Shown here in pieces: positions 6,128 to 15,286 of a stretch of DNA of 64,000 nt. Origin of the DNA: Flaviflexus ciconiae. GTDB lineage: Bacteria; Actinomycetota; Actinomycetes; Actinomycetales; Actinomycetaceae. The notes below the pieces were generated by a model. The model was not told the origin of the DNA, searched no databases, and saw only the letters and a list, made by a program, of their open reading frames with translations. The first letter of the stretch is position 1; each line of letters opens with the position of its first letter. Location: assembly GCF_003971195.1 (NCBI RefSeq), contig NZ_CP034593.1, forward strand, positions 248,001 through 312,000, in the 5' to 3' direction. A program made the position numbers and the translations under genes.

Positions 6128-7418
6128 CCATCACCGGACTCATTGTCCTCATCATCGGGATCATCCTTGCCATTGCCCTCCACGAGCTTGGCCACCTCAT
6201 TCCCGCCAAGCTTTTCGGAGTGAAAGTCCCGAGATACTTCATCGGATTCGGTCCGACACTGTTCTCGAAAACAATTAACGGAACAGAGTACGGGGTGAAA
6301 GCAATAGCGCTTGGCGGCTTTGTTTCCCTCTCGGGCATGTATGCCCCATCCAAACCCGGCGCGAAGATCACGAACCGCAAGGGGCAGCTGACGCTCGCCG
6401 AAGAAGTGCGGCAAGTATCTGCGGAAGAGCTGGAACCGGGGAGGAAGATCGGGCGTTCTACAAGCTGTCGGTCCCGAAGAAGCTTGCCGTCATGTTCGGC
6501 GGTCCCTTCGTTAACCTCCTGATCGCTCTTGTTCTTTCCGCTGTTCTCCTCGTCGGAGTGGGCGCCCCGGCGCTCCTGTCCCAGGTCGGTTCGGTTGCCG
6601 AATGCGTGAGCTCGGCCGAATGCACTGACTCCGACCCACAAGGTCCCGCTTCCCAAGCCGGCCTACAACCGGGCGATGAGATTGTCTCCTGGGGCGGTAA
6701 TGAAACCGAGTCCTGGAACGATGTGCAGCAGGCTATTACCCGCGGCGAGGCGGCCCCGACCGACGTTGTTATCGAACGCGACGGGGAGCGCATGACGCTC
6801 ACGGTCACGCCTGTTATGCAGGAGAGGCCCGTCGTTGACGCGGAGGGTAACCCGGTCATGGACGGCGATGACTACGTCACCGCTCCCGTGCCCTATGTTG
6901 GTATCTCACCCGCAATCGGATTGGAGAAGCAGTCCCTATCGGAGGCGCCTTCGTACCTTGGCAACATGCTGTGGCAGACCGCAGGAATCATTGTTCGCCT
7001 GCCCCAGCAGCTGTGGAACCTGACCTCCGATTTTGTGACGGGCCAGGAACGCGACCAGACCGGGATCGTCGGCATCGTCGGTGTCGCCCAGGTAGCCGGT
7101 CAGATCACCGGCGCCGATATCGAAGGCTATTCGGGTCTAGAAAAGTCGGCCGATCTCATCAACCTGCTGGTTGCGCTCAACATTTCGCTGTTTGCGTTCA
7201 ACATGCTTCCGCTCCTGCCACTCGATGGTGGCCACATTGCAGGGGCCCTTTACGAGGGAGCAAGACGCCAGTGGGCGAAGCTCCGCGGCAAGCCAGATCC
7301 GGGACCCGCGGACACGGCGAGGCTCATGCCGCTCAGCTACGTCGTTGCTGGCGCGTTTATCCTCATGACCGTGATCCTTGTCGTCGTTGACGTTTTCAAC
7401 CCGATCAGTCTCTACTGA
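6124..7418 (+). CDS. rseP: Site-2 zinc metalloprotease (M50, RseP-like), frameshifted
   Basis: Intramembrane protease that cleaves anti-sigma factors and other membrane proteins. The N-terminal membrane helix carries HELGH (HExxH zinc site) near residue 19. A PDZ domain follows (GLQPGDEIVSWGG), and the C-terminal NMLPLLPLDGGH holds the third zinc ligand. The frame breaks in the G-run at 6438-6441: the first part reads EELEPG and the second resumes as DRAFYKLSVPKKLAVMFGGP. Restoring one G gives a continuous 431-aa protein reading EPGEEDRAFYKLS. A sequencing error is more likely than a true loss, given infB and dapA in this window. Confidence 0.88.
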
Positions 7419-7636
7419 TCGCTGGCTGCAAGTTGATCGCCGGCCACAAGCTGGTCTTCGACTGTCGTCCAACTGCTGATCTGCCACTGGGCACAATCAT
7501 TGGCTGGCCACGGATCAGGTATTCGGGCAAATTGAATCTTCGTAAAGATGCCGGACGGGGTCTCTTCAATGCAGGTAAGCACGTCTGTCGGAAGACTCTG
7601 GACCTGCTCGATAGCCCTCTGACCAGTATCAATCAA
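7412..7636 (-). CDS. Possible small hypothetical protein
   Basis: A 74-codon leftward frame (TTG start) in the otherwise gene-free 311 bases between rseP and the YCII gene. The translation has natural-looking composition (e.g. DVLTCIEETPSG, WQISSWTTVEDQL) and no Arg/Pro excess typical of shadow frames. It has no clear ribosome-binding site and I recognise no family. A rightward frame (7433-7675) covers the same bases and looks less protein-like. Treat as a weak candidate; the region may simply be a degraded remnant. Confidence 0.25.
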   Translation of the reverse strand: MIDTGQRAIEQVQSLPTDVLTCIEETPSGIFTKIQFARIPDPWPANDCAQWQISSWTTVEDQLVAGDQLAASDQ

Positions 7637-7729
7637 CTAACGAAAGAGACGGTTCTGTTCCGCAGGTGCGGTTAGCGGACTAGAGTTTAGTGAATGAGGA
7701 GAAACGTTCTGCGGCGAGAGGGGAAGACC

Positions 7730-8071
7730 ATGCCAAAGTTTCTGATCTCATTTCCATCCAGCGCGATGAATCTGACGCCCGAGGAACTGGAAGAAGCCGT
7801 CAATGATTCGCATGCTGTTTGGCGTGAGGCAGTGGACGCAGGTGTCTGGGTGTTTGGTGGAGCGATCGACGAGGATACGGCGCCAGTTATTGTCGAAGCC
7901 GATGGTGCTATGACGCGTGGAACCTATCCTGATTCCGGAAAACTTGACGGTGGGTTTGCGATCTTCGACGTGCCTACCTACGAGGAGGCGGTTGAGTGGG
8001 CCGCGAAGATAGCTAAGGCCTGCAAGTGCCCCCAAGAGCTGCGGATCTTCAGTGATGATCCTGAGGCCTAA
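7730..8071 (+). CDS. YCII-related domain protein
   Basis: 113-aa protein of the YCII/DGPF superfamily: MPKFLISFPSSAMNLTPEEL, central WVFGGAIDEDTAPV, and C-terminal PTYEEAVEWAAKIAKACKCPQELRIF. These are small alpha-beta-barrel proteins of unclear function, some fused to or co-encoded with ECF sigma factors. The start is the ATG preceded by GAGGGGAAG; the longer frame adds an Arg-rich stretch before this site. It stands alone between rseP and the leftward ECF-transporter operon, with a bidirectional hairpin after it. Confidence 0.85.
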   Translation: MPKFLISFPSSAMNLTPEELEEAVNDSHAVWREAVDAGVWVFGGAIDEDTAPVIVEADGAMTRGTYPDSGKLDGGFAIFDVPTYEEAVEWAAKIAKACKCPQELRIFSDDPEA

Positions 8072-8128
8072 CCAGGCAAGCTTGAGGAGGCCCTAGCCTG
8101 GACAGTTGATCCCCGACTGGATAAACGA

Positions 8129-8158
8129 ACCGGAGACCTCCACGTGAAGGTCTCCGGT
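8129..8158. terminator. Bidirectional terminator
   Basis: Perfect 11-bp stem ACCGGAGACCT / AGGTCTCCGGT with an 8-base loop, followed rightward by AAATTTATT. It lies between the converging YCII gene and ecfT and probably serves both. Confidence 0.75.
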
Positions 8159-8180
8159 AAATTTATTGATCCCCTTTCCT

Positions 8181-9008
8181 CTACGTGCGGTAGATGGGCC
8201 ACATGGCCCCGGCCCAGAAGCAGATTACGATAAGGATGATGGTGCCTGCCAGGACGGCGATATCGAGGGTGGTGATCGTCAGGTAGGCGAGGCGTAGTTG
8301 CCTGCCGCGTCCGTCCTCTTGGGCGTAGGTGAAGCCACGGGTCTCGAGTGCCTCCACGGTTGTTCGTACGTTCTTCGCGGTGTTGAGGAAGATCGGGTAG
8401 AAGCTCAGCACCGCCATCTTCACCCAGTGGACGATGGTGCGCCACGCAAAGATGCCGTGTTTTTCTGGTGCCGCCATGCGCAACCGATATCCGTCGAAGA
8501 CGGTGTTGAACTCTTCAACCATGATGGGGAGCATGCGGTATCCGTAGGAAACGCCGAAGGCCAGCAGGCTGGGTGCCTTGAAAGCGAGCAGAGCATCGGA
8601 GAGTTTCTCGGGATCGAGGGAAACGAAGGCCGCCATGGAGGCCATGGATACGGCTCCGAGTTTCAGGTTGAGGACACCGAGGGCGATGAGGGTGTCGAAG
8701 TTACCTCCGAAAAGCAGGGAGGCTGCGACGAGGTAGATGATTTCGAATCCGAGCCCAATGATGAACAGGCCAAGGACGAGGGGACCGACGCGGGCGGCGA
8801 TGACGGAGACGGCACCGAGGAGGAACAGTCCCGCCAGGACGGTCACGTTGTGGGTGAACCAGGGGACGATCGCGAGGATCAGGTACCAGACGATCACAGC
8901 CCGGGGATCCATCCTGCTGAACAGGCCGCCGCGGGTCGCGTAGGCGGTACGGATAAGTTCGAGCTTCACCCATTCGATGGAGAGAACATCTCGTTGTTTG
9001 CGTGCCAT
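8181..9008 (-). CDS. ecfT: ECF transporter transmembrane subunit (EcfT)
   Basis: 275-aa CbiQ/EcfT-family membrane protein coupling ATP hydrolysis to the substrate-binding S subunit. Several hydrophobic segments occupy about residues 35-130, with another at the C-terminus (VLAGTIILIVICFWAGAMW). The two cytoplasmic coupling-helix motifs typical of EcfT are visible as DGYRLRMAAP and EALETRGFTY. The start overlaps the ATPase stop by one base. It is last in the leftward operon HAD-S-AA-T. Substrate unknown. Confidence 0.9.
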   Translation of the reverse strand: MARKQRDVLSIEWVKLELIRTAYATRGGLFSRMDPRAVIVWYLILAIVPWFTHNVTVLAGLFLLGAVSVIAARVGPLVLGLFIIGLGFEIIYLVAASLLFGGNFDTLIALGVLNLKLGAVSMASMAAFVSLDPEKLSDALLAFKAPSLLAFGVSYGYRMLPIMVEEFNTVFDGYRLRMAAPEKHGIFAWRTIVHWVKMAVLSFYPIFLNTAKNVRTTVEALETRGFTYAQEDGRGRQLRLAYLTITTLDIAVLAGTIILIVICFWAGAMWPIYRT

Positions 9009-10699
9009 TACACGGCCTCCATGGAGTTCTGCAGGGCGGAAACAAGTTCGTCGACGCTCAGCGGGGGAGGGGTGACTCCCAGTTCGTTGCCGAGGAGAAC
9101 AACCTGGGGTGGGACCACCCGTGCCCGTGCCAATGTCTCCGGCATAGTAAACAGCTCCCGCGGTTCGAGATCTGCTGCGACCGTGCCGTTTTCGAGAACA
9201 ATGACTCTATTCGCCCACTCGGCCACCAAATGCATGTCGTGGGTGGCGACTACGGTGCACTCGATGACGCCGGCGAGCTCCGCCAGCATGGTGGTGACGT
9301 CCTCGCGGGACGACACATCGAGGGAGGACGTCGGTTCGTCCAGCAGGAGGATCCGGGGCCTCATGGCGAGCCCAATGGCGAGGGTTGCTCGCCTCTGTTG
9401 CCCGCCGGACAGTGCTCTGCCGTCTCGATCCGCGAAGTCGGTGAGGTTCACTCGGTTGAGTGTGTCGTCGACAAGTTCTTCCCAGTTCTCGATTCCCCGT
9501 CCCTCGGGGAAGAGGGCGATGTCGGAACGGATCGAGTCTTTGAGGAACATCTGCTGGGGATGCTGGTAGAGATAGGCGGCGATCTCGGAGAGCTTGCTGG
9601 CCGACCGGCTACGGGTGTTCACCCCGTCGATCTCAACCTCACCGGAGCGAGGCACGGACAGTCCTGCCAGTTGCTTGAGGAGCGTGGTCTTGCCAGAGCC
9701 GTTGCCGCCGACGACGGCAATACGGTCCCCCGCATAGAACTCCAGGTTGATGCCCTTGAGGACCGGGAGGACGTCCCCGCCGACGGACTTGTACCCGTGG
9801 TGGAGGTCCGTCGTGCGGGCAACGACTCGTTCGGCTGGGCGGTGTCGCGGAAGGGCGGTGACCATGCCGGTTGCCATGCCCCGATCTTCGAGCATTCGGG
9901 CGGCGGTGGGCACATCCCTGGGTGCTCTTTCCATTCCCATGGTGGAACAGACCTGGACGACCTGGGGCGCGGGGATACCGTGCTCTTCCAGTTCGTCCGT
10001 GCGGTTGACGGCTTCGTCGATGTTAAGATGCCAGACGGGTGCACCATCAGCCATAAGCACGACCGATTTCGCGTATTGTGCGATGAACTCGGCGTGGTGC
10101 TCGATGGTGATAATGGTCAGTCCCTGCTCGTTGAGTTCCTGGAGCTGACGATAGATTTCGTGGGCTCGGGCCGGGTCGAGTTCGGCGACGGGTTCGTCAA
10201 CAACGACGATGTCGGGACGCAGGGCAAGCACGGCGGCGAGTGCCGTCGTGTGTGCCTGCCCGCCGCTGAGTGCCCAGGTGAAGCGGTCAGCGATGTTCTC
10301 AATACCAAGGGTGTGAAGAACCTCTGCGGAACGCTCCTCAAAGTCAGCGTGTCCGAAGTTGACGGGACCGAACCTGATCTCGTCACGGACGGTGGGTCGG
10401 ACCAGCTGGTTCTGGAAGTCCTGGTAGACGTATCCGACCTTGGAGGAAAGGACGGCAACATTCGACTCGAAAGTGTCGATGCCGTCGACGACAACATCGC
10501 CTGCGAAGTCGCCGTTCCAGTAGTGGGGGATGAGTCCGTTGAAGGTTTTGCACAGGGTGGTTTTACCCGAGCCGTTGCCTCCAACGATGGCGACGAAGTC
10601 GCCACGCTCAATGGTGAGATTAACGTTTTTGAGGGTGTCCTCCTCAGCTCCCGGGTAGCGGAAGCTGAGATCGGACACCGTGATGATCGGATTGCTCAC
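9008..10699 (-). CDS. ECF transporter fused double ATPase (A-A')
   Basis: 563-aa cytoplasmic ATPase with two complete ABC domains in one chain. Domain 1: Walker A GGNGSGKTT at about residue 39, signature ALSGGQAHTTALA, Walker B VVVDEP, switch IEHH. Domain 2 (from about residue 300): Walker A GGNGSGKTTLLKQ, signature ALSGGQQRRATLA, Walker B LLLDEPTSSLD, switch THDMH. The linker is about 45 residues. Starts GTG, overlapping the S-subunit stop (GTGA). Such fused A components are common in actinobacterial ECF systems. Confidence 0.93.
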   Translation of the reverse strand: MSNPIITVSDLSFRYPGAEEDTLKNVNLTIERGDFVAIVGGNGSGKTTLCKTFNGLIPHYWNGDFAGDVVVDGIDTFESNVAVLSSKVGYVYQDFQNQLVRPTVRDEIRFGPVNFGHADFEERSAEVLHTLGIENIADRFTWALSGGQAHTTALAAVLALRPDIVVVDEPVAELDPARAHEIYRQLQELNEQGLTIITIEHHAEFIAQYAKSVVLMADGAPVWHLNIDEAVNRTDELEEHGIPAPQVVQVCSTMGMERAPRDVPTAARMLEDRGMATGMVTALPRHRPAERVVARTTDLHHGYKSVGGDVLPVLKGINLEFYAGDRIAVVGGNGSGKTTLLKQLAGLSVPRSGEVEIDGVNTRSRSASKLSEIAAYLYQHPQQMFLKDSIRSDIALFPEGRGIENWEELVDDTLNRVNLTDFADRDGRALSGGQQRRATLAIGLAMRPRILLLDEPTSSLDVSSREDVTTMLAELAGVIECTVVATHDMHLVAEWANRVIVLENGTVAADLEPRELFTMPETLARARVVPPQVVLLGNELGVTPPPLSVDELVSALQNSMEAV

Positions 10700-11619
10700 G
10701 CATCGACCTTGTCGTTGTTATCGACCTGCTGGTCGGTGTTCTTATCCCGGATTCCGATCCGGTATGAGACAAAGGCAATGATCGTTGTCAGGACGATCGC
10801 GCCCACGCCAACCCAGAGGAAACTCATGCCGTACTGTTCCAGGAACTCGGGTTCGAAGACACCGATTTCAACATCCCAGGACTCGAGGAAAGCGAAGAAG
10901 GCGGAACCGATTGCGATAGCAACGGCAACGACAACGAACCAGCCTGCGCGGGGAGCCTCACCGGGGATCGGCTCACCGGTGACGCGGGGACGCATACCCA
11001 TGAGCGGCTCGATCTTGCCGTGAAGCGCGGGGATGAGCCACATGGCGGGGATGGCGCCGAAGAGGATACCGGAGATAACAATGTCGACACCGAAACCAAT
11101 CGACTCGATAGCGAGCATCGACTCTGGAAGACCCTCGACGTACTCGGCGTCCTCAAGACCAACCCAGACCTTCGTCAGGTCAACGGCGGCCGACAGGAAC
11201 TTGTCAATAACAACCACCATGATCGCGCCAACCCAGATCTGGGTCTTCGAACGCGGATCACGGATGAGGGAGCCTGCGATAAAGAGGGCGAGGAACATCT
11301 GGAAGAAGCCCTCAATCTCCGCCAGGCCGGAGAAGTCACCCATGAGCAGGTCAACGAAAACAATCTCACCAAGCGGTGCGCCAAGTGCTGCCCAGAAAGG
11401 CGAGAACAGGGCAACCATCGTGAGGGGGACAAAGACGAAGTAGGAGACGGACACGTCGATCGGGCCGAGCGACACGTCAGGAATGATTTCCAGGATGATG
11501 TTTGCCAGGCCAAACAGGGCCATCGACAGAACGAACACCATGAGCTTCTGAGGGGTAGAGAGAGTGGGCTTGGAACCTTCGGTGCGAACGCGACCGGCGC
11601 GCTCATACGTTGTGGACAT
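10696..11619 (-). CDS. ECF transporter substrate-binding (S) component-like membrane protein
   Basis: 307-aa integral membrane protein encoded before the ECF ATPase and T subunit, so the probable substrate-recognition subunit. Hydrophobic segments: MVFVLSMALFGLANIILEII, FVFVPLTMVALFSPFWAAL, GFFQMFLALFIAGSL, IWVGAIMVVVIDKF, a segment near IGFGVDIVISGILFGAI, then two more at the C-terminus (GWFVVVAVAIAIGSAFFAF and FLWVGVGAIVLTTIIAFV). The C-terminal pair is extra to the usual six-helix S component. Start chosen at MSTTYERAG, preceded by AAAGGAAG. It overlaps the HAD gene end by 17 bases. Substrate not readable from sequence. Confidence 0.8.
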   Translation of the reverse strand: MSTTYERAGRVRTEGSKPTLSTPQKLMVFVLSMALFGLANIILEIIPDVSLGPIDVSVSYFVFVPLTMVALFSPFWAALGAPLGEIVFVDLLMGDFSGLAEIEGFFQMFLALFIAGSLIRDPRSKTQIWVGAIMVVVIDKFLSAAVDLTKVWVGLEDAEYVEGLPESMLAIESIGFGVDIVISGILFGAIPAMWLIPALHGKIEPLMGMRPRVTGEPIPGEAPRAGWFVVVAVAIAIGSAFFAFLESWDVEIGVFEPEFLEQYGMSFLWVGVGAIVLTTIIAFVSYRIGIRDKNTDQQVDNNDKVDA

Positions 11620-13375
11620 GATCTTCCTTTGCGAGGGAGTGGATGATAGCTGCGGAAAGTTGTTGGGGAGTATCGACAACGAGTGTTGCCGTACCGTCGG
11701 ACAGGGCATTATCGAGGACATTGTCGGGAGTGGAACCACCCCGGATCAGGGCACGATTGGCTATGCCCGCGCGGCGAGCACCCGTCGCATCATTGACTGG
11801 CTTGTCGCCAAGGAACCAGGAGTTCTTAGGATCGGCACTGGCAATAGCGAGAGCTTCTTCAAAGATTGGAGCGCTCGGCTTACGAACACCGATCTCGTCG
11901 GAACAGACAAAGGCATCGATGGTGAGCCCGTGCCTTTCGCATTCGGACCGCACCGTGCGTCCCGAAATCGTATTCGAGACGACGATGATTGCCATGCCGT
12001 TCTCCCTGCACGTCTGAAACAGTTCCGGGATCCCCGGACGGAGAGTGCGGGAAGTCTTAGCCCTGGCGAACCTCACCGTCAGGTCGTGGGCCTCAGCTCG
12101 GAACCATGCGGCGTTCACAACGCCTAGGAACTCGTTCACGGTGGCCCAAAACTCGGTGGGTTGCTGCTCGGGAATATCGGTGCGGGAACCCGCCAGGAAA
12201 GCCTCGTTCCATGCTGTTTTCAGCTTCTTATGAACGGCACGAGCAGAGTCAATAGCCTCACGAACCTCAGAGGCTGTCACAACATCGCCAGGTAGGAGAG
12301 GAATCCGAGAAGCAATATCTTCAGCAACCTCATTGACTGCCTCAGGATTGGGCGTAGATGTCGAAATAACACCGCCGTGATCGATGAGCAGGGCAGCGCG
12401 CGAACCAAATACATTTGTGGTCAGTGAACCGCTGGTTTGGTGCGATGATGCTGGGTCGGACTTTGACGATGCTCCGGTGGGAAGAAGAACCGAGCCGGGT
12501 TGTGACGAAGTCGGTGCCGGCTGTGACGCCGCCGGTGCCTGTTGGGACTCGGACGATGACTGTTGGGACGTCGTCGAGGTACCCCGAGAGGAGTATGGAT
12601 CCATCTGTTCCGTAGCGTTGATGAGCGCGTCAAGGAGTCCACGCGGATCATCAAAGACAGCGTCTGGGGTTTCGCGAACGTAGAACGGAGGATTGTCGGT
12701 GTGCTTAGAACGAGTCAGGATCAGTCCGGCAACGCCGGCCGCACTGCCCGCGACAACATCCCGGTCCTGCGTGTCACCCACGTACCAGCACTTGTCGACA
12801 TCGACATGCAGAGCATCGGCGGCTTGGGCGATCATGCCCGGATGAGGTTTACGGATACCGACCTCATCAGAATAGACCTGCACCCCAAAATACGAGTCCA
12901 GGTCGTGTTCGGCCAAGATCCGGCGGTGCGCCAGCCCAGCATGAGCATTGGACACAATGCCAAGAGGAATCTCGTTTGCTTTGCAGAACTCGAGGAGTTC
13001 CGGAATGCCAGGGCGAACAATGTGGTCGGACATTGTCATCGAGATCGTGGCAAGCAGTTCTGTCGCCTCTGCAATGAGGAGCCTGCGCGGTCCCTCGGGT
13101 AGACGAGAGAACAGGAACTCTCCAACAACCTCCCGAGCGTCGATCTCGGTGGGGTAGGGGCGTCGTGACGAGGAATGCTTCCAGTGCTTGAGGCCGGTTC
13201 TGCCTGCCTCAAGCTCGCGGGCCAGCTCGTCCTCGGACAGGTCGTAGCCGCCGCGCAGAAGCATTTCGCGCACGTGACGTGCCACGTCCTTGAGCCCATC
13301 GGGTCGCTTGTGTGTTTCAAAGATGACTCCGCCGAAGTCGAGCAGGAGCCCGTGGGGGCGGTGAGTAAGAGCCAT
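11603..13375 (-). CDS. Tandem HAD-superfamily hydrolase (two HAD domains)
   Basis: 590-aa protein made of two HAD-like phosphatase domains. Domain 1 (about 1-255): LLLDFGGVIFE with nucleophile Asp13, VSNAHA, KPHPGM, GDTQDRD. Domain 2 (about 325-590): LLIDHGGVIS with Asp332, VSNTISG, RKPSAPIFEEAL, GDKPVNDATGARRAG. The usual second Asp of DxD is Gly in both, as in the DFGG-type HAD subgroup. A Ser/Gln/Pro-rich linker (about 260-315) joins them. First gene of the leftward ECF operon, behind a LacI-type operator; it may process the transported compound or its phosphate ester (inference). Confidence 0.87.
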   Translation of the reverse strand: MALTHRPHGLLLDFGGVIFETHKRPDGLKDVARHVREMLLRGGYDLSEDELARELEAGRTGLKHWKHSSSRRPYPTEIDAREVVGEFLFSRLPEGPRRLLIAEATELLATISMTMSDHIVRPGIPELLEFCKANEIPLGIVSNAHAGLAHRRILAEHDLDSYFGVQVYSDEVGIRKPHPGMIAQAADALHVDVDKCWYVGDTQDRDVVAGSAAGVAGLILTRSKHTDNPPFYVRETPDAVFDDPRGLLDALINATEQMDPYSSRGTSTTSQQSSSESQQAPAASQPAPTSSQPGSVLLPTGASSKSDPASSHQTSGSLTTNVFGSRAALLIDHGGVISTSTPNPEAVNEVAEDIASRIPLLPGDVVTASEVREAIDSARAVHKKLKTAWNEAFLAGSRTDIPEQQPTEFWATVNEFLGVVNAAWFRAEAHDLTVRFARAKTSRTLRPGIPELFQTCRENGMAIIVVSNTISGRTVRSECERHGLTIDAFVCSDEIGVRKPSAPIFEEALAIASADPKNSWFLGDKPVNDATGARRAGIANRALIRGGSTPDNVLDNALSDGTATLVVDTPQQLSAAIIHSLAKEDHVHNV

Positions 13376-13385
13376 GTGTCCTCGT

Positions 13386-13403
13386 TTCTGGAACGTCTAG
13401 CCG
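13386..13403. promoter_or_regulatory. Candidate LacI-type operator O2 (imperfect)
   Basis: TTCTGGAACGTCTAGCCG, eleven bases before the HAD start. Its left half matches the left arm of the perfect-arm operator at 13452-13469; the right half is degenerate. The TGGAACG core is typical of LacI-family sites. Confidence 0.5.
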
Positions 13404-13451
13404 TGACCTTAGAGGGCGTAAGTGACATCCACGTGGCGGGAAGGTTAACAA

Positions 13452-13469
13452 TTCTGGAGCGTTCCAGAA
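13452..13469. promoter_or_regulatory. LacI-type operator O1
   Basis: TTCTGGAGCGTTCCAGAA: 7-bp inverted arms TTCTGGA/TCCAGAA around GCGT, with the central CG characteristic of LacI-family operators. It ends 17 bases before the lacI-type gene start, so autoregulation plus control of the divergent ECF operon is likely. Confidence 0.75.
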
Positions 13470-13486
13470 CGTGATAGAACTAGTAC

Positions 13487-14452
13487 ATGCGAAACCGAAC
13501 AACAATCGTCGACGTGGCCAAGGCAGCGGGAGTGTCAAAATCACTCGTTTCCCTTGCCATCAGAGGCGATGCGGGAGTGAGCGACGAAACACGCCAGCGG
13601 ATCCTCGCGGTTGCCGATGACCTCGGATATCGCTCCAATGTGTGGGCGCGTTCCCTGGCACACGGGAAAACCAACATGATTGGCGTGCTACTGACGGACC
13701 TCAGTAACCCCTACCACACCGACGTTGTTATCGGCGTGGAGGATGCTGCCCACGAACGGGGACAGAACGTTCTCATCAGCCACGGCAGGCGAGACCCTGA
13801 TCTGTTGGCGAGCCAGCTCCTAAAGTTTGAAGCACTTGGCGTTGATGGCATCATCGTTATTTCTGCGCATACCCCCAGTGATGTCATTGCCGATATTGCA
13901 CAGCGCACGCGAGTGGTTATTGTTGGTCGGCCAGGGGAGCTACCGGAAAGTGTGAGCCGAATCCGTAACGATGACGAACTCGGAGCAAGAAGGGCAACCA
14001 CCCACCTTCTCGAGAGCGGCAGAACGCGTATCGCTTTCCTCCAGAACTCGACCTCGCCCTCTGCTCGTGCGCGGCAGAAGTCTTACGAGCAGACACTAAG
14101 GGAAGCAGGGCTAGATCCTCTCGTCCTTACTCCAGGTGACCTCACTGCCGATGCGTTCACAGGGATTGACGGAATCGTTGCGGCCAATGATCGCGGCGCA
14201 GTCCACGCACTTGGGGAGGCAAGCGATGCTGGGGTACGCGTACCAAGCGATCTTGCGATAGTCGGCTATGACAACTCGCAGCTTTCTCGAGTTGTCCGGC
14301 CGCAGCTTTCTTCCGTCGATCAGCCGAGGATCCAGATGGGAAGAAGAGCACTGGAAGCCGTACTCGGCAACGAGGTTATCCACGAAGTGTTCGAACCCGA
14401 ACTCGTCATCCGTGACTCCTCGGCGCTCGAGAGGGCAACTGTCGAGAGCTAA
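13487..14452 (+). CDS. LacI-family transcriptional regulator
   Basis: 321-aa repressor. The N-terminal helix-turn-helix and hinge read TTIVDVAKAAGVSKSLVS then RGDAGVSDETRQRI and LGYRSNVWARSL. A periplasmic-binding-protein-like effector domain follows (NMIGVLLTDLSNPYHTDVV, GIVAANDRGAVHALGEA, DLAIVGYDNSQLSRVVRP). It is divergent from the HAD/ECF operon with palindromic operators between, and 36 bases before the ketosamine-kinase-like gene, which suggests one regulon. The ligand is probably a sugar or sugar-derived compound by family precedent. Confidence 0.93.
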   Translation: MRNRTTIVDVAKAAGVSKSLVSLAIRGDAGVSDETRQRILAVADDLGYRSNVWARSLAHGKTNMIGVLLTDLSNPYHTDVVIGVEDAAHERGQNVLISHGRRDPDLLASQLLKFEALGVDGIIVISAHTPSDVIADIAQRTRVVIVGRPGELPESVSRIRNDDELGARRATTHLLESGRTRIAFLQNSTSPSARARQKSYEQTLREAGLDPLVLTPGDLTADAFTGIDGIVAANDRGAVHALGEASDAGVRVPSDLAIVGYDNSQLSRVVRPQLSSVDQPRIQMGRRALEAVLGNEVIHEVFEPELVIRDSSALERATVES

Positions 14453-14488
14453 CCGATAGAACCGGGTAGCGTGGTGTCAGGAGAGAAA

Positions 14489-15286
14489 ATGACTGACACC
14501 TTCACAAAGTCTTCCGCAAACAACCGCGGCGAAGCCGCAGGCCTCACCTGGCTCGGCCAGGCCACGGGTGGCGGAGGAGCGCGCGTCACCCGCGTCATCC
14601 ACGTAGACGACTCCGTTCTCGAGATCGAACGGATTAAACAGACTGCTCCAAGCCCCGAGAATGCTCGAGCCTTCGGCCGGGCACTCGCCCACACTCACGC
14701 GGCCGGAGCACCCTGGTGGGGATGTGCACCCGAGGGGTGGATTGGTCCCGACTACATTGGGCGCTCGCGAACGAAGCTGTTCCCCGAAAAAGAAACCGCA
14801 CCCACATCCTTCGGCCAGTTATACGGCGAGCACCGCATCGCCGACTTCGCCAAACGCATCGTTGACCGCGGACTCATCACCGCGAAAGAAGCGAGAATCT
14901 TCGACGACCTAGCCGAGCGGCTCATCGCAGGTGACTTCGACTCCGAACAACCAAAGCTCGTACAAGACGCCGGATTCGACGTTGCCAGACTGCATGGCGA
15001 CATGTGGGCAGGAAATGTTCTCTACTGCGGTGGACCTACCGGCGCCGCGTTGATTGATCCCATGGCGCACGGCGGACATGCAGAAACGGACCTGGCTGCG
15101 CTCGCGGTCTTCGGTTTCCCCTACCTTGAAGAGGTCTACGCAGGCTATGACGAAGCCTCACCTTTGGCTGATGGTTGGCAGGGGAGAAGCGGGCTCCACC
15201 AGCTCGGAATGATCATCATGCATGCCCACCTTTTCGAAGGGCACTACGTGGGGTGGGCGGAGGAGGTTGCGGGGAAATATCGGTAG
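14489..15286 (+). CDS. Fructosamine/ketosamine-3-kinase family protein
   Basis: 265-aa kinase-like protein of the fructosamine-kinase/aminoglycoside-phosphotransferase fold. The catalytic loop is LHGDMWAGNVLY (HGDxWxGN) and the metal-binding Asp is in ALIDPMAHGGHAETDLA; the N-lobe contains GGGGARVTRV. Start is the ATG after AGGAGAGAAA; the GTG six codons earlier is less well placed. It probably phosphorylates ketosamines (glycated amines) or a similar sugar-amine. It lies 36 bases behind the LacI gene, so likely co-transcribed and tied to the ECF locus. Confidence 0.86.
   Translation: MTDTFTKSSANNRGEAAGLTWLGQATGGGGARVTRVIHVDDSVLEIERIKQTAPSPENARAFGRALAHTHAAGAPWWGCAPEGWIGPDYIGRSRTKLFPEKETAPTSFGQLYGEHRIADFAKRIVDRGLITAKEARIFDDLAERLIAGDFDSEQPKLVQDAGFDVARLHGDMWAGNVLYCGGPTGAALIDPMAHGGHAETDLAALAVFGFPYLEEVYAGYDEASPLADGWQGRSGLHQLGMIIMHAHLFEGHYVGWAEEVAGKYR

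What the first reader, a model, noticed from the sequence alone, without database searches (positions are those of the whole stretch)
8181..15286. LacI-controlled ECF transporter, double HAD phosphatase and ketosamine kinase: a possible new uptake pathway
The locus pairs an ECF transporter of unknown specificity, which normally takes vitamins and metals, with a sugar-type regulator, a two-domain phosphatase and a fructosamine-kinase-like enzyme. Shared operators suggest one regulon. A plausible reading is import of a sugar-amine, nucleoside or phosphosugar, with kinase and phosphatase steps. I know of no described system with this set.
Basis: partly seen in the sequence, partly recalled or inferred. 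Interest (0 to 1): 0.75.

Follow-up and report, generated by a model that had tools for sequence, protein, structure and literature searches.

The report
Sugar-type ECF importer with dedicated phosphatase
A self-contained bacterial uptake cassette, in which an uncharacterised vitamin-type (ECF) transporter travels with its own phosphatase and a sugar-sensing type of regulator, recurs across actinomycetes and bacilli and probably imports a sugar-like, possibly phosphorylated, nutrient.

Summary
The genes are real and the operon is conserved. In the window a tandem HAD hydrolase, S, fused A-A' ATPase and T form one overlapping operon divergent from lacI. Of 77 actinomycete loci (75 of the best 80 of 483 database hits, one plasmid, the window), 73 carry HAD and 70 LacI; the 4 without HAD hold at most 359 bases before the S match. 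A palindrome, YCTGGAACGTTCCAGR, lies between lacI and HAD. The kinase is a passenger (1 of 86 loci). The S model has the ECF S-component fold; no relative is solved, and the family is often named 'FtsQ'. In 18 Bacilli loci and 9 loci of another family of the window's phylum the same transporter has a different regulator and enzyme: RpiR and PHP. Three haloarchaeal plasmids carry ComB, PHP or IMPase phosphatases instead. Unrelated phosphatase families beside one transporter point to a phosphate-ester step. A second locus of the same genome pairs a sister HAD and LacI with an IMPase and an AfuA-like binding protein. Best reading: uptake of a sugar- or polyol-type compound plus dephosphorylation. 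That the imported form carries the phosphate is favoured, unproven, and opposed by an acid-rich outer face of S.

The parts
8121..8166 (.). inverted repeat (23-nt arms) between the YCII-like gene and the ECF operon, terminator-like
   Evidence: pair I1; function inferred
8181..9008 (-). EcfT (T component, CbiQ family)
   Evidence: present in 86 of 86 loci
9008..10699 (-). EcfA-EcfA' fused ATPase (two ABC domains)
   Evidence: 86 of 86 loci
10696..11619 (-). S component, DUF8171/PF26509-labelled family; six-helix S fold plus two extra C-terminal helices (the latter at pLDDT about 65-76)
11603..13375 (-). tandem HAD hydrolase: two complete capped HAD domains, both with catalytic Asp, Ser, Lys and motif IV acids and with Gly at Asp+2
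   Evidence: (72 sequences)
13387..13400 (.). degenerate second operator (TCTGGAACGTCTAG), starting 66 bases from the first
   Evidence: sister loci L009, L010, L011, L013 have two sites at the same spacing
13453..13468 (.). LacI-type operator TCTGGAGCGTTCCAGA
13487..14452 (+). LacI-family regulator, divergent
   Evidence: a divergent LacI in 70 of 77 actinomycete loci
14471..15286 (+). fructosamine-kinase-like protein; judged a passenger, not part of the system
   Evidence: (1 of 86 loci)

Best explanation
A self-contained uptake cassette. Shown by sequence and predicted fold: a dedicated ECF transporter (S, fused AA', T) is encoded in one overlapping operon with a two-domain HAD hydrolase and faces a LacI-family regulator whose operator lies between them. 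Inferred: S binds a small sugar- or polyol-like compound outside the cell and the ATP-driven module brings it in; the phosphatase removes a phosphate monoester, which traps the product and releases a sugar that enters general metabolism; LacI is relieved by that sugar. In Bacilli and in one other family of the same phylum the same transporter stands beside an RpiR-family regulator (a family that senses phosphosugars, by general knowledge) and a PHP phosphoesterase-like protein. Most likely, but not shown: the imported compound itself carries the phosphate, because the cassette has a phosphatase and no kinase.
For: Operon conservation: HAD in 73 of 77 actinomycete loci, the 4 without it holding at most 359 bases before the S match; a divergent LacI in 70 of 77. 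Different phosphatase families at the same transporter: HAD (actinomycetes); PHP in 18 Bacilli loci and 9 loci of family f41; ComB plus PHP, ComB, or two IMPases on three haloarchaeal plasmids. Regulators of sugar type in both bacterial versions. Catalytic residues conserved in HAD (72 sequences) and PHP (23 sequences). A second locus in the same genome has a HAD 38% identical to domain 1, a LacI relative in two frames (42% and 36%), palindromes with the core TGGARCGNTCCA, an IMPase and a binding protein. Two rhizobial relatives of that binding protein, of 158 records hit, were looked at: both sit with LacI, ABC permease, ATPase and IMPase. Their profile reaches AfuA, a proven sugar-phosphate binder (PMC4546632, abstract and passages).
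Against: The outer half of S has 11 acid positions conserved at 92% or more (E44, D48, D55, D90, D95, E101, E103, D147, D157, E159, E172) and one conserved base, K150 (which face is outward is inferred): odd for an anionic ligand. The binding-protein profile scores an iron-named protein as well as AfuA. Both HAD domains lack the usual second Asp, and haloacid dehalogenases rank beside phosphatases in the fold list. The best NCBIfam model of the Bacilli PHP protein, below cut-off, is CehA/McbA, not a phosphatase. The own genome has 14 operator-like sites at up to 2 mismatches against 3 for the reversed control pattern; the other 13 were not examined, so a wider regulon is not excluded. No substrate was found for any member, and all function is inferred.
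Confidence: 0.5

Rival explanations
1. The imported compound is free (unphosphorylated), probably an amino sugar, polyol or other cation; a housekeeping kinase phosphorylates it inside, and the dedicated phosphatase removes a harmful or dead-end phosphate ester.
For: Acid-rich outer face of S with a single conserved Lys and a conserved aromatic at W152; LacI regulators usually bind free sugars (general knowledge).
Against: No kinase is conserved in the cassette (for the window's kinase; for other recurring clusters); a phosphatase would be needed in every lineage for a side product.
Confidence: 0.3
2. An importer of a phosphorylated vitamin or nucleoside (for example a B6, thiamine or riboflavin phosphate, or a nucleotide), with the phosphatase making it usable.
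For: The S fold is that of FolT, RibU, ThiT, PanT and BioY; weak, below-cut-off HAD, PHP and IMPase matches include nucleotidase models.
Against: No vitamin riboswitch at S in the window or in the 23 other loci scanned; regulators are sugar-type. In the 67 loci clustered, no gene cluster outside the core occurs in more than 12 loci; those small clusters were not annotated, so this is weak.
Confidence: 0.13
3. Sugar-amine or glycated-amine utilisation with the fructosamine-kinase-like enzyme.
For: The kinase starts 18 bases after lacI, on the same strand, and is absent from this place in the relatives checked, so it may have come with the cassette.
Against: Kinase beside the cassette in 1 of 86 loci; a relative in 47 of 61 family genomes, while S is in 2 of 121.
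Confidence: 0.03

Closest known systems
Vitamin-type ECF transporters (FolT, RibU, ThiT, PanT, BioY with EcfAA'T)
   Different: No solved structure matched by sequence with the family profile; two extra helices; ATPases fused; dedicated phosphatase-like gene; LacI or RpiR beside it; no riboswitch in the loci scanned
AfuABC hexose/heptose-phosphate ABC importer (PMC4546632: abstract and passages seen)
   Same: Possible function: active import of phosphorylated sugars; relatives of the binding protein of a second locus in this genome pair with LacI and phosphatases
   Different: AfuABC uses a periplasmic binding protein and classical ABC permease; the window cassette has neither
HAD sugar-phosphate phosphatases (MtlD phosphatase domain, AlnB, YihX)
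   Different: Two domains in one chain, conserved in the 72 sequences aligned; substrate unknown

Membership tests
ECF transporter | S component with the six-helix S fold | tested here: met
ECF transporter | EcfT of CbiQ/EcfT type | tested here: met
   PF02361, 36.9 bits against cut-off 25
ECF transporter | two EcfA-type ATPases | tested here: met
   TIGR04520, 373 bits against cut-off 315, two stretches in one chain
ECF transporter | high-affinity uptake of a substrate through S | not testable with these tools
   needs purified S or a transport assay
HAD phosphatase (C1 cap) | nucleophilic Asp, Ser/Thr, Lys and acidic motif IV | tested here: met
   both domains, 72 sequences, with one or two exceptions at some positions (for example the domain 2 nucleophile is Asp in 71 of 72)
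HAD phosphatase (C1 cap) | second Asp at +2 (DxD) | tested here: not met
   Gly at +2 in 70 of 70 with a residue there (domain 1) and 72 of 72 (domain 2); so 'phosphatase' stays an inference
LacI-family local repressor | LacI HTH plus sugar-binding domain and a palindromic CG-centred operator nearby | tested here: met
   of 55 loci with LacI at 43% identity or more, 48 have a site of 13/16 or better; of 14 below that, 2
vitamin ECF system under riboswitch | vitamin riboswitch upstream of S | tested here: not met
   none at S in the window or in 23 other loci, gathering scores; the remaining loci were not scanned
fructosamine utilisation | kinase conserved with the transporter | tested here: not met
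   1 of 86 loci
AfuABC sugar-phosphate importer | periplasmic binding protein and classical permease in the cassette | tested here: not met
   none among the window cassette's genes; the comparison is of possible function only

The most novel reading that the evidence does not exclude
A widespread family of ECF transporters that import a phosphorylated sugar, polyol or cyclitol without a binding protein, each coupled to a lineage-specific cytosolic phosphatase (tandem HAD, PHP, ComB or IMPase) and, in bacteria, a sugar or phosphosugar regulator: an ECF counterpart of AfuABC and UhpT, and a first ECF class for phosphorylated carbohydrates.
Probability: 0.38. Interest if true: 0.8.

Novelty: new variant of a known kind. 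Interest (0 to 1): 0.6.

Why it matters
ECF transporters are known for vitamins and metals. A family with at least 2,891 relatives at E 0.001 among the 7,999 candidates scored, many of them publicly named 'cell division protein FtsQ', turns out to be part of a compact uptake cassette with its own phosphatase-like gene and sugar-type regulator. If the substrate is a phosphorylated carbohydrate, the ECF class extends to a new kind of nutrient, and Gram-positive bacteria gain a route for scavenging phosphate esters. Because regulator and phosphatase are swapped as a pair while the transporter stays, the substrate can be tested with several independent enzymes.

Tried and rejected
Fructosamine kinase as pathway enzyme: rejected. 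Vitamin riboswitch: none at S; the guanidine-I hit in L006 lies beyond the cassette, on the other strand. Wider LacI regulon: the own genome has one perfect site, one with 1 mismatch and 12 with 2, against 3 for the reversed control pattern; the 13 imperfect sites were not examined. Of 34 handles given, 32 genomes were held; the exact YCTGGAACGTTCCAGR occurs in 9 of them, once each. By coordinates, 8 of these 9 lie at the lacI-HAD region; in Jonesia (G134) the site (472737) is about 190 kb from S (280917).

Sequence match of S to solved structures: FolT at E 0.088 with the single sequence, plus an unrelated weak hit; none with the profile. Viral fold library: nothing at E 0.001. Foldseek against PDB was never accepted; VIA-align was used instead. 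Literature: ten searches listed no paper on this cassette or DUF8171, judged by titles and abstract starts; several lists were cut (30 of 44, 15 of 17, 10 of 95, 8 of 2,812), and the library holds open-licence papers only. PMC11109136 (S-component fold) was searched for six terms and gave nothing on this family (passages only).

Failed or faulty scripts: and one search stopped with errors, one search stopped half-way (finished); gene calling dropped 39 of 86 loci and 19. Counts therefore rest on unfiltered BLAST, the strand check and tblastn. One search read a wrong frame and is not used. The strand check's adjacency rule was met by 65 of 77 loci; 7 more (L032, L037, L048, L054, L060, L076, L087) have HAD on the same strand just upstream by their coordinates but an overlong S frame; L057 has HAD downstream on the other strand; 4 have none.

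Dropped rows: of 16 Bacilli hits, G153 is the Salibacterium genome already counted as L083; I fetched 13 others and left out G184 (contig edge) and G418 (E 8.8e-4). Of 10 hits in family f41, 9 were fetched; G788 (split between two matches) was not. The HAD alignment left out L020 (149 bits, under my 200-bit limit). The tree labelled all nine f41 loci as PHP before all nine were verified.
Full report
What is there. The window lies in a 2.83-Mb, single-contig genome of an unnamed actinomycete (phylum inferred from its relatives). Between rseP/YCII and ispG sit T (8181-9008), fused A-A' (9008-10699), S (10696-11619) and tandem HAD (11603-13375) on the minus strand, and lacI (13487-14452) and a fructosamine-kinase-like gene (14471-15286) on the plus strand (rseP and ispG were named by eye). 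The four minus-strand genes overlap by 1 to 17 bases, as in one translationally coupled operon. A terminator-like inverted repeat (8121-8166) separates it from the YCII-like gene.

The cassette is probably acquired. S is found in 2 of 121 genomes of the family (own included) and in none of the other five members of the genus searched. In the nearest of these (ispG 96% identical) rseP runs straight into ispG; in two others only the YCII-like gene lies between. GC content does not differ from the flanks.

Conservation in actinomycetes. A scan of species genomes found 483 encoding stretches; the best 80 were kept, so close relatives are favoured. With five plasmids and the window I examined 86 loci: S, AA' and T in 86, HAD in 73, LacI in 70, kinase in 1. 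Of the 77 actinomycete loci, the 4 without HAD (L012, L061, L070, L072) hold at most 359 bases before the S match. Of the 7 without LacI, six lie at contig ends and one (L057) is rearranged, with HAD downstream. The family is patchy: S in 31 of 297 genomes in the order of one carrier, one of these hits weak, and in 5 of 296 across the phylum, one of them weak and interrupted by a stop. A full-length tandem-HAD match (E 1e-40 limit) occurs in 1 of 296, the own genome, so no genome of that sample has the tandem HAD without S.

Operator. The lacI-HAD region carries YCTGGAACGTTCCAGR. Of 55 loci whose LacI is at least 43% identical to the window's, 48 have a site of 13/16 or better within the stretch tested around the lacI start; of 14 with a more distant LacI (mostly Brachybacterium and Brevibacterium), 2 do. 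As control, the best score elsewhere in the same locus reaches 13 in 15 of 69 loci. Of 2,761 control segments, 479 reach the locus's own score, 477 of them in the 19 loci scoring under 13; in some of these (L064, L074, L075) an overlong lacI frame probably put a good site outside the tested stretch. The window has one site at 13453-13468 and a degenerate one starting at 13387; four sister loci have two sites at the same spacing. The own genome has one perfect site, but 14 at up to 2 mismatches against 3 for the control pattern, so a wider regulon is not excluded.

The same transporter with other partners. In six Bacilli loci found first and in 12 of 13 further loci fetched the order is RpiR (divergent)-S-AA'-T-PHP; the thirteenth (L134) is a divergent S without AA'T. 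In family f41 of the window's own phylum, S, T, PHP and RpiR lie together in 9 of 9 loci fetched. RpiR has HTH and SIS domains above cut-off in L083; in L006 the HTH is just below cut-off and no SIS match was listed. All 23 PHP proteins aligned keep the putative metal ligands (H6, H8, H42, E78, H131, D188, H190 in L083; assigned by general knowledge) and four basic residues. On haloarchaeal plasmids the cassette is followed by ComB and PHP (Halobacterium), ComB (Halostagnicola) or two IMPases, the second on the other strand (Halopiger); no regulator was identified there. In the S tree the HAD carriers fall, with the four contig-end loci, in one clade (100/100), and the PHP carriers lie outside it. 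So the regulator-phosphatase pair was exchanged as a whole, probably once. Unrelated enzymes with one shared expected chemistry beside one transporter are the main evidence for a phosphate-ester step.

A parallel locus. The tandem-HAD search hit the own genome a second time, near 2.61 Mb. L173 has a binding protein (8931-10187), a single HAD (7898-8704, 38% identical to domain 1), an IMPase overlapping it (7071-7901), and LacI pieces in two frames (42% and 36% identical to the window's). Palindromes with the core TGGARCGNTCCA lie at 10279 and 10167, around the start of the binding-protein gene (scores 13 and 12 of 16, weak alone). I recognised no permease nearby, and transposase-like ORFs flank it (by eye), so it may be decayed. 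Relatives of the binding protein (42-47% identical) were hit in 158 plasmid records; I looked at two. In Devosia and Sinorhizobium they sit with LacI, an 'iron' ABC permease, an ATPase and two or one IMPase. Their profile reaches AfuA (4r72, E 1.4e-5) and equally an iron-named protein (8x1a, E 1e-5). AfuABC is a demonstrated hexose/heptose-phosphate importer once predicted to carry iron (PMC4546632: abstract and passages). This supports a phosphorylated substrate by analogy only.

Against the favoured reading. On the side of S that should face outward by homology with the S fold, 11 acid positions are conserved at 92% or more and only one base, K150 (59 sequences; helix limits set by hand). 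That suits a cation, an amino sugar or a polyol better than an anion. I therefore keep two claims apart: a sugar-type uptake system with a phosphate-ester step (about 0.7), and import of the phosphorylated form itself (about 0.4). Coordinates of the model were not available for pocket analysis.

Verdict. Observation confirmed; interpretation right on the ECF-LacI-HAD unit and not supported on the kinase; a conserved variant of the ECF class on which my ten literature searches listed nothing.

Noticed in passing
G000:C1:2604000-2621000 (L173): Second LacI/HAD/IMPase/binding-protein locus in the same genome; the LacI frame is split and transposase-like ORFs flank it; PfkB and PIG-L genes nearby.
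   Followed up: partly
L136:6218-6895 and L137:6451-7146: A single HAD-like protein with a DMGNVL or DMGGVL motif lies divergent to S in two of the nine loci of family f41, a further phosphatase-like neighbour (by eye, no family search).
   Followed up: no
L134: A divergent S gene (45% identical to its nearest reference) without AA' or T beside it.
   Followed up: no
L006:13093-13192: Guanidine-I riboswitch on the minus strand just beyond the Niallia cassette, ahead of small multidrug-transporter-like genes (the genes named by eye).
   Followed up: no
L128:10128-10491 and 10614-10978: Two tmRNA matches in tandem next to the cassette.
   Followed up: no
public databases: Many members of the S family are named 'cell division protein FtsQ', apparently a propagated misannotation.
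   Followed up: partly
L083, L085, L086 downstream of the PHP gene: Genes that look like parts of a dihydroxyacetone kinase (DhaM, DhaL, in L083 also DhaK) lie on the opposite strand beside the cassette in Salibacterium (names by eye, not from a family search).
   Followed up: no
G000, 13 further sites: More operator-like sites at 1 or 2 mismatches than the reversed control pattern gives (14 against 3, the perfect one included); not examined.
   Followed up: no
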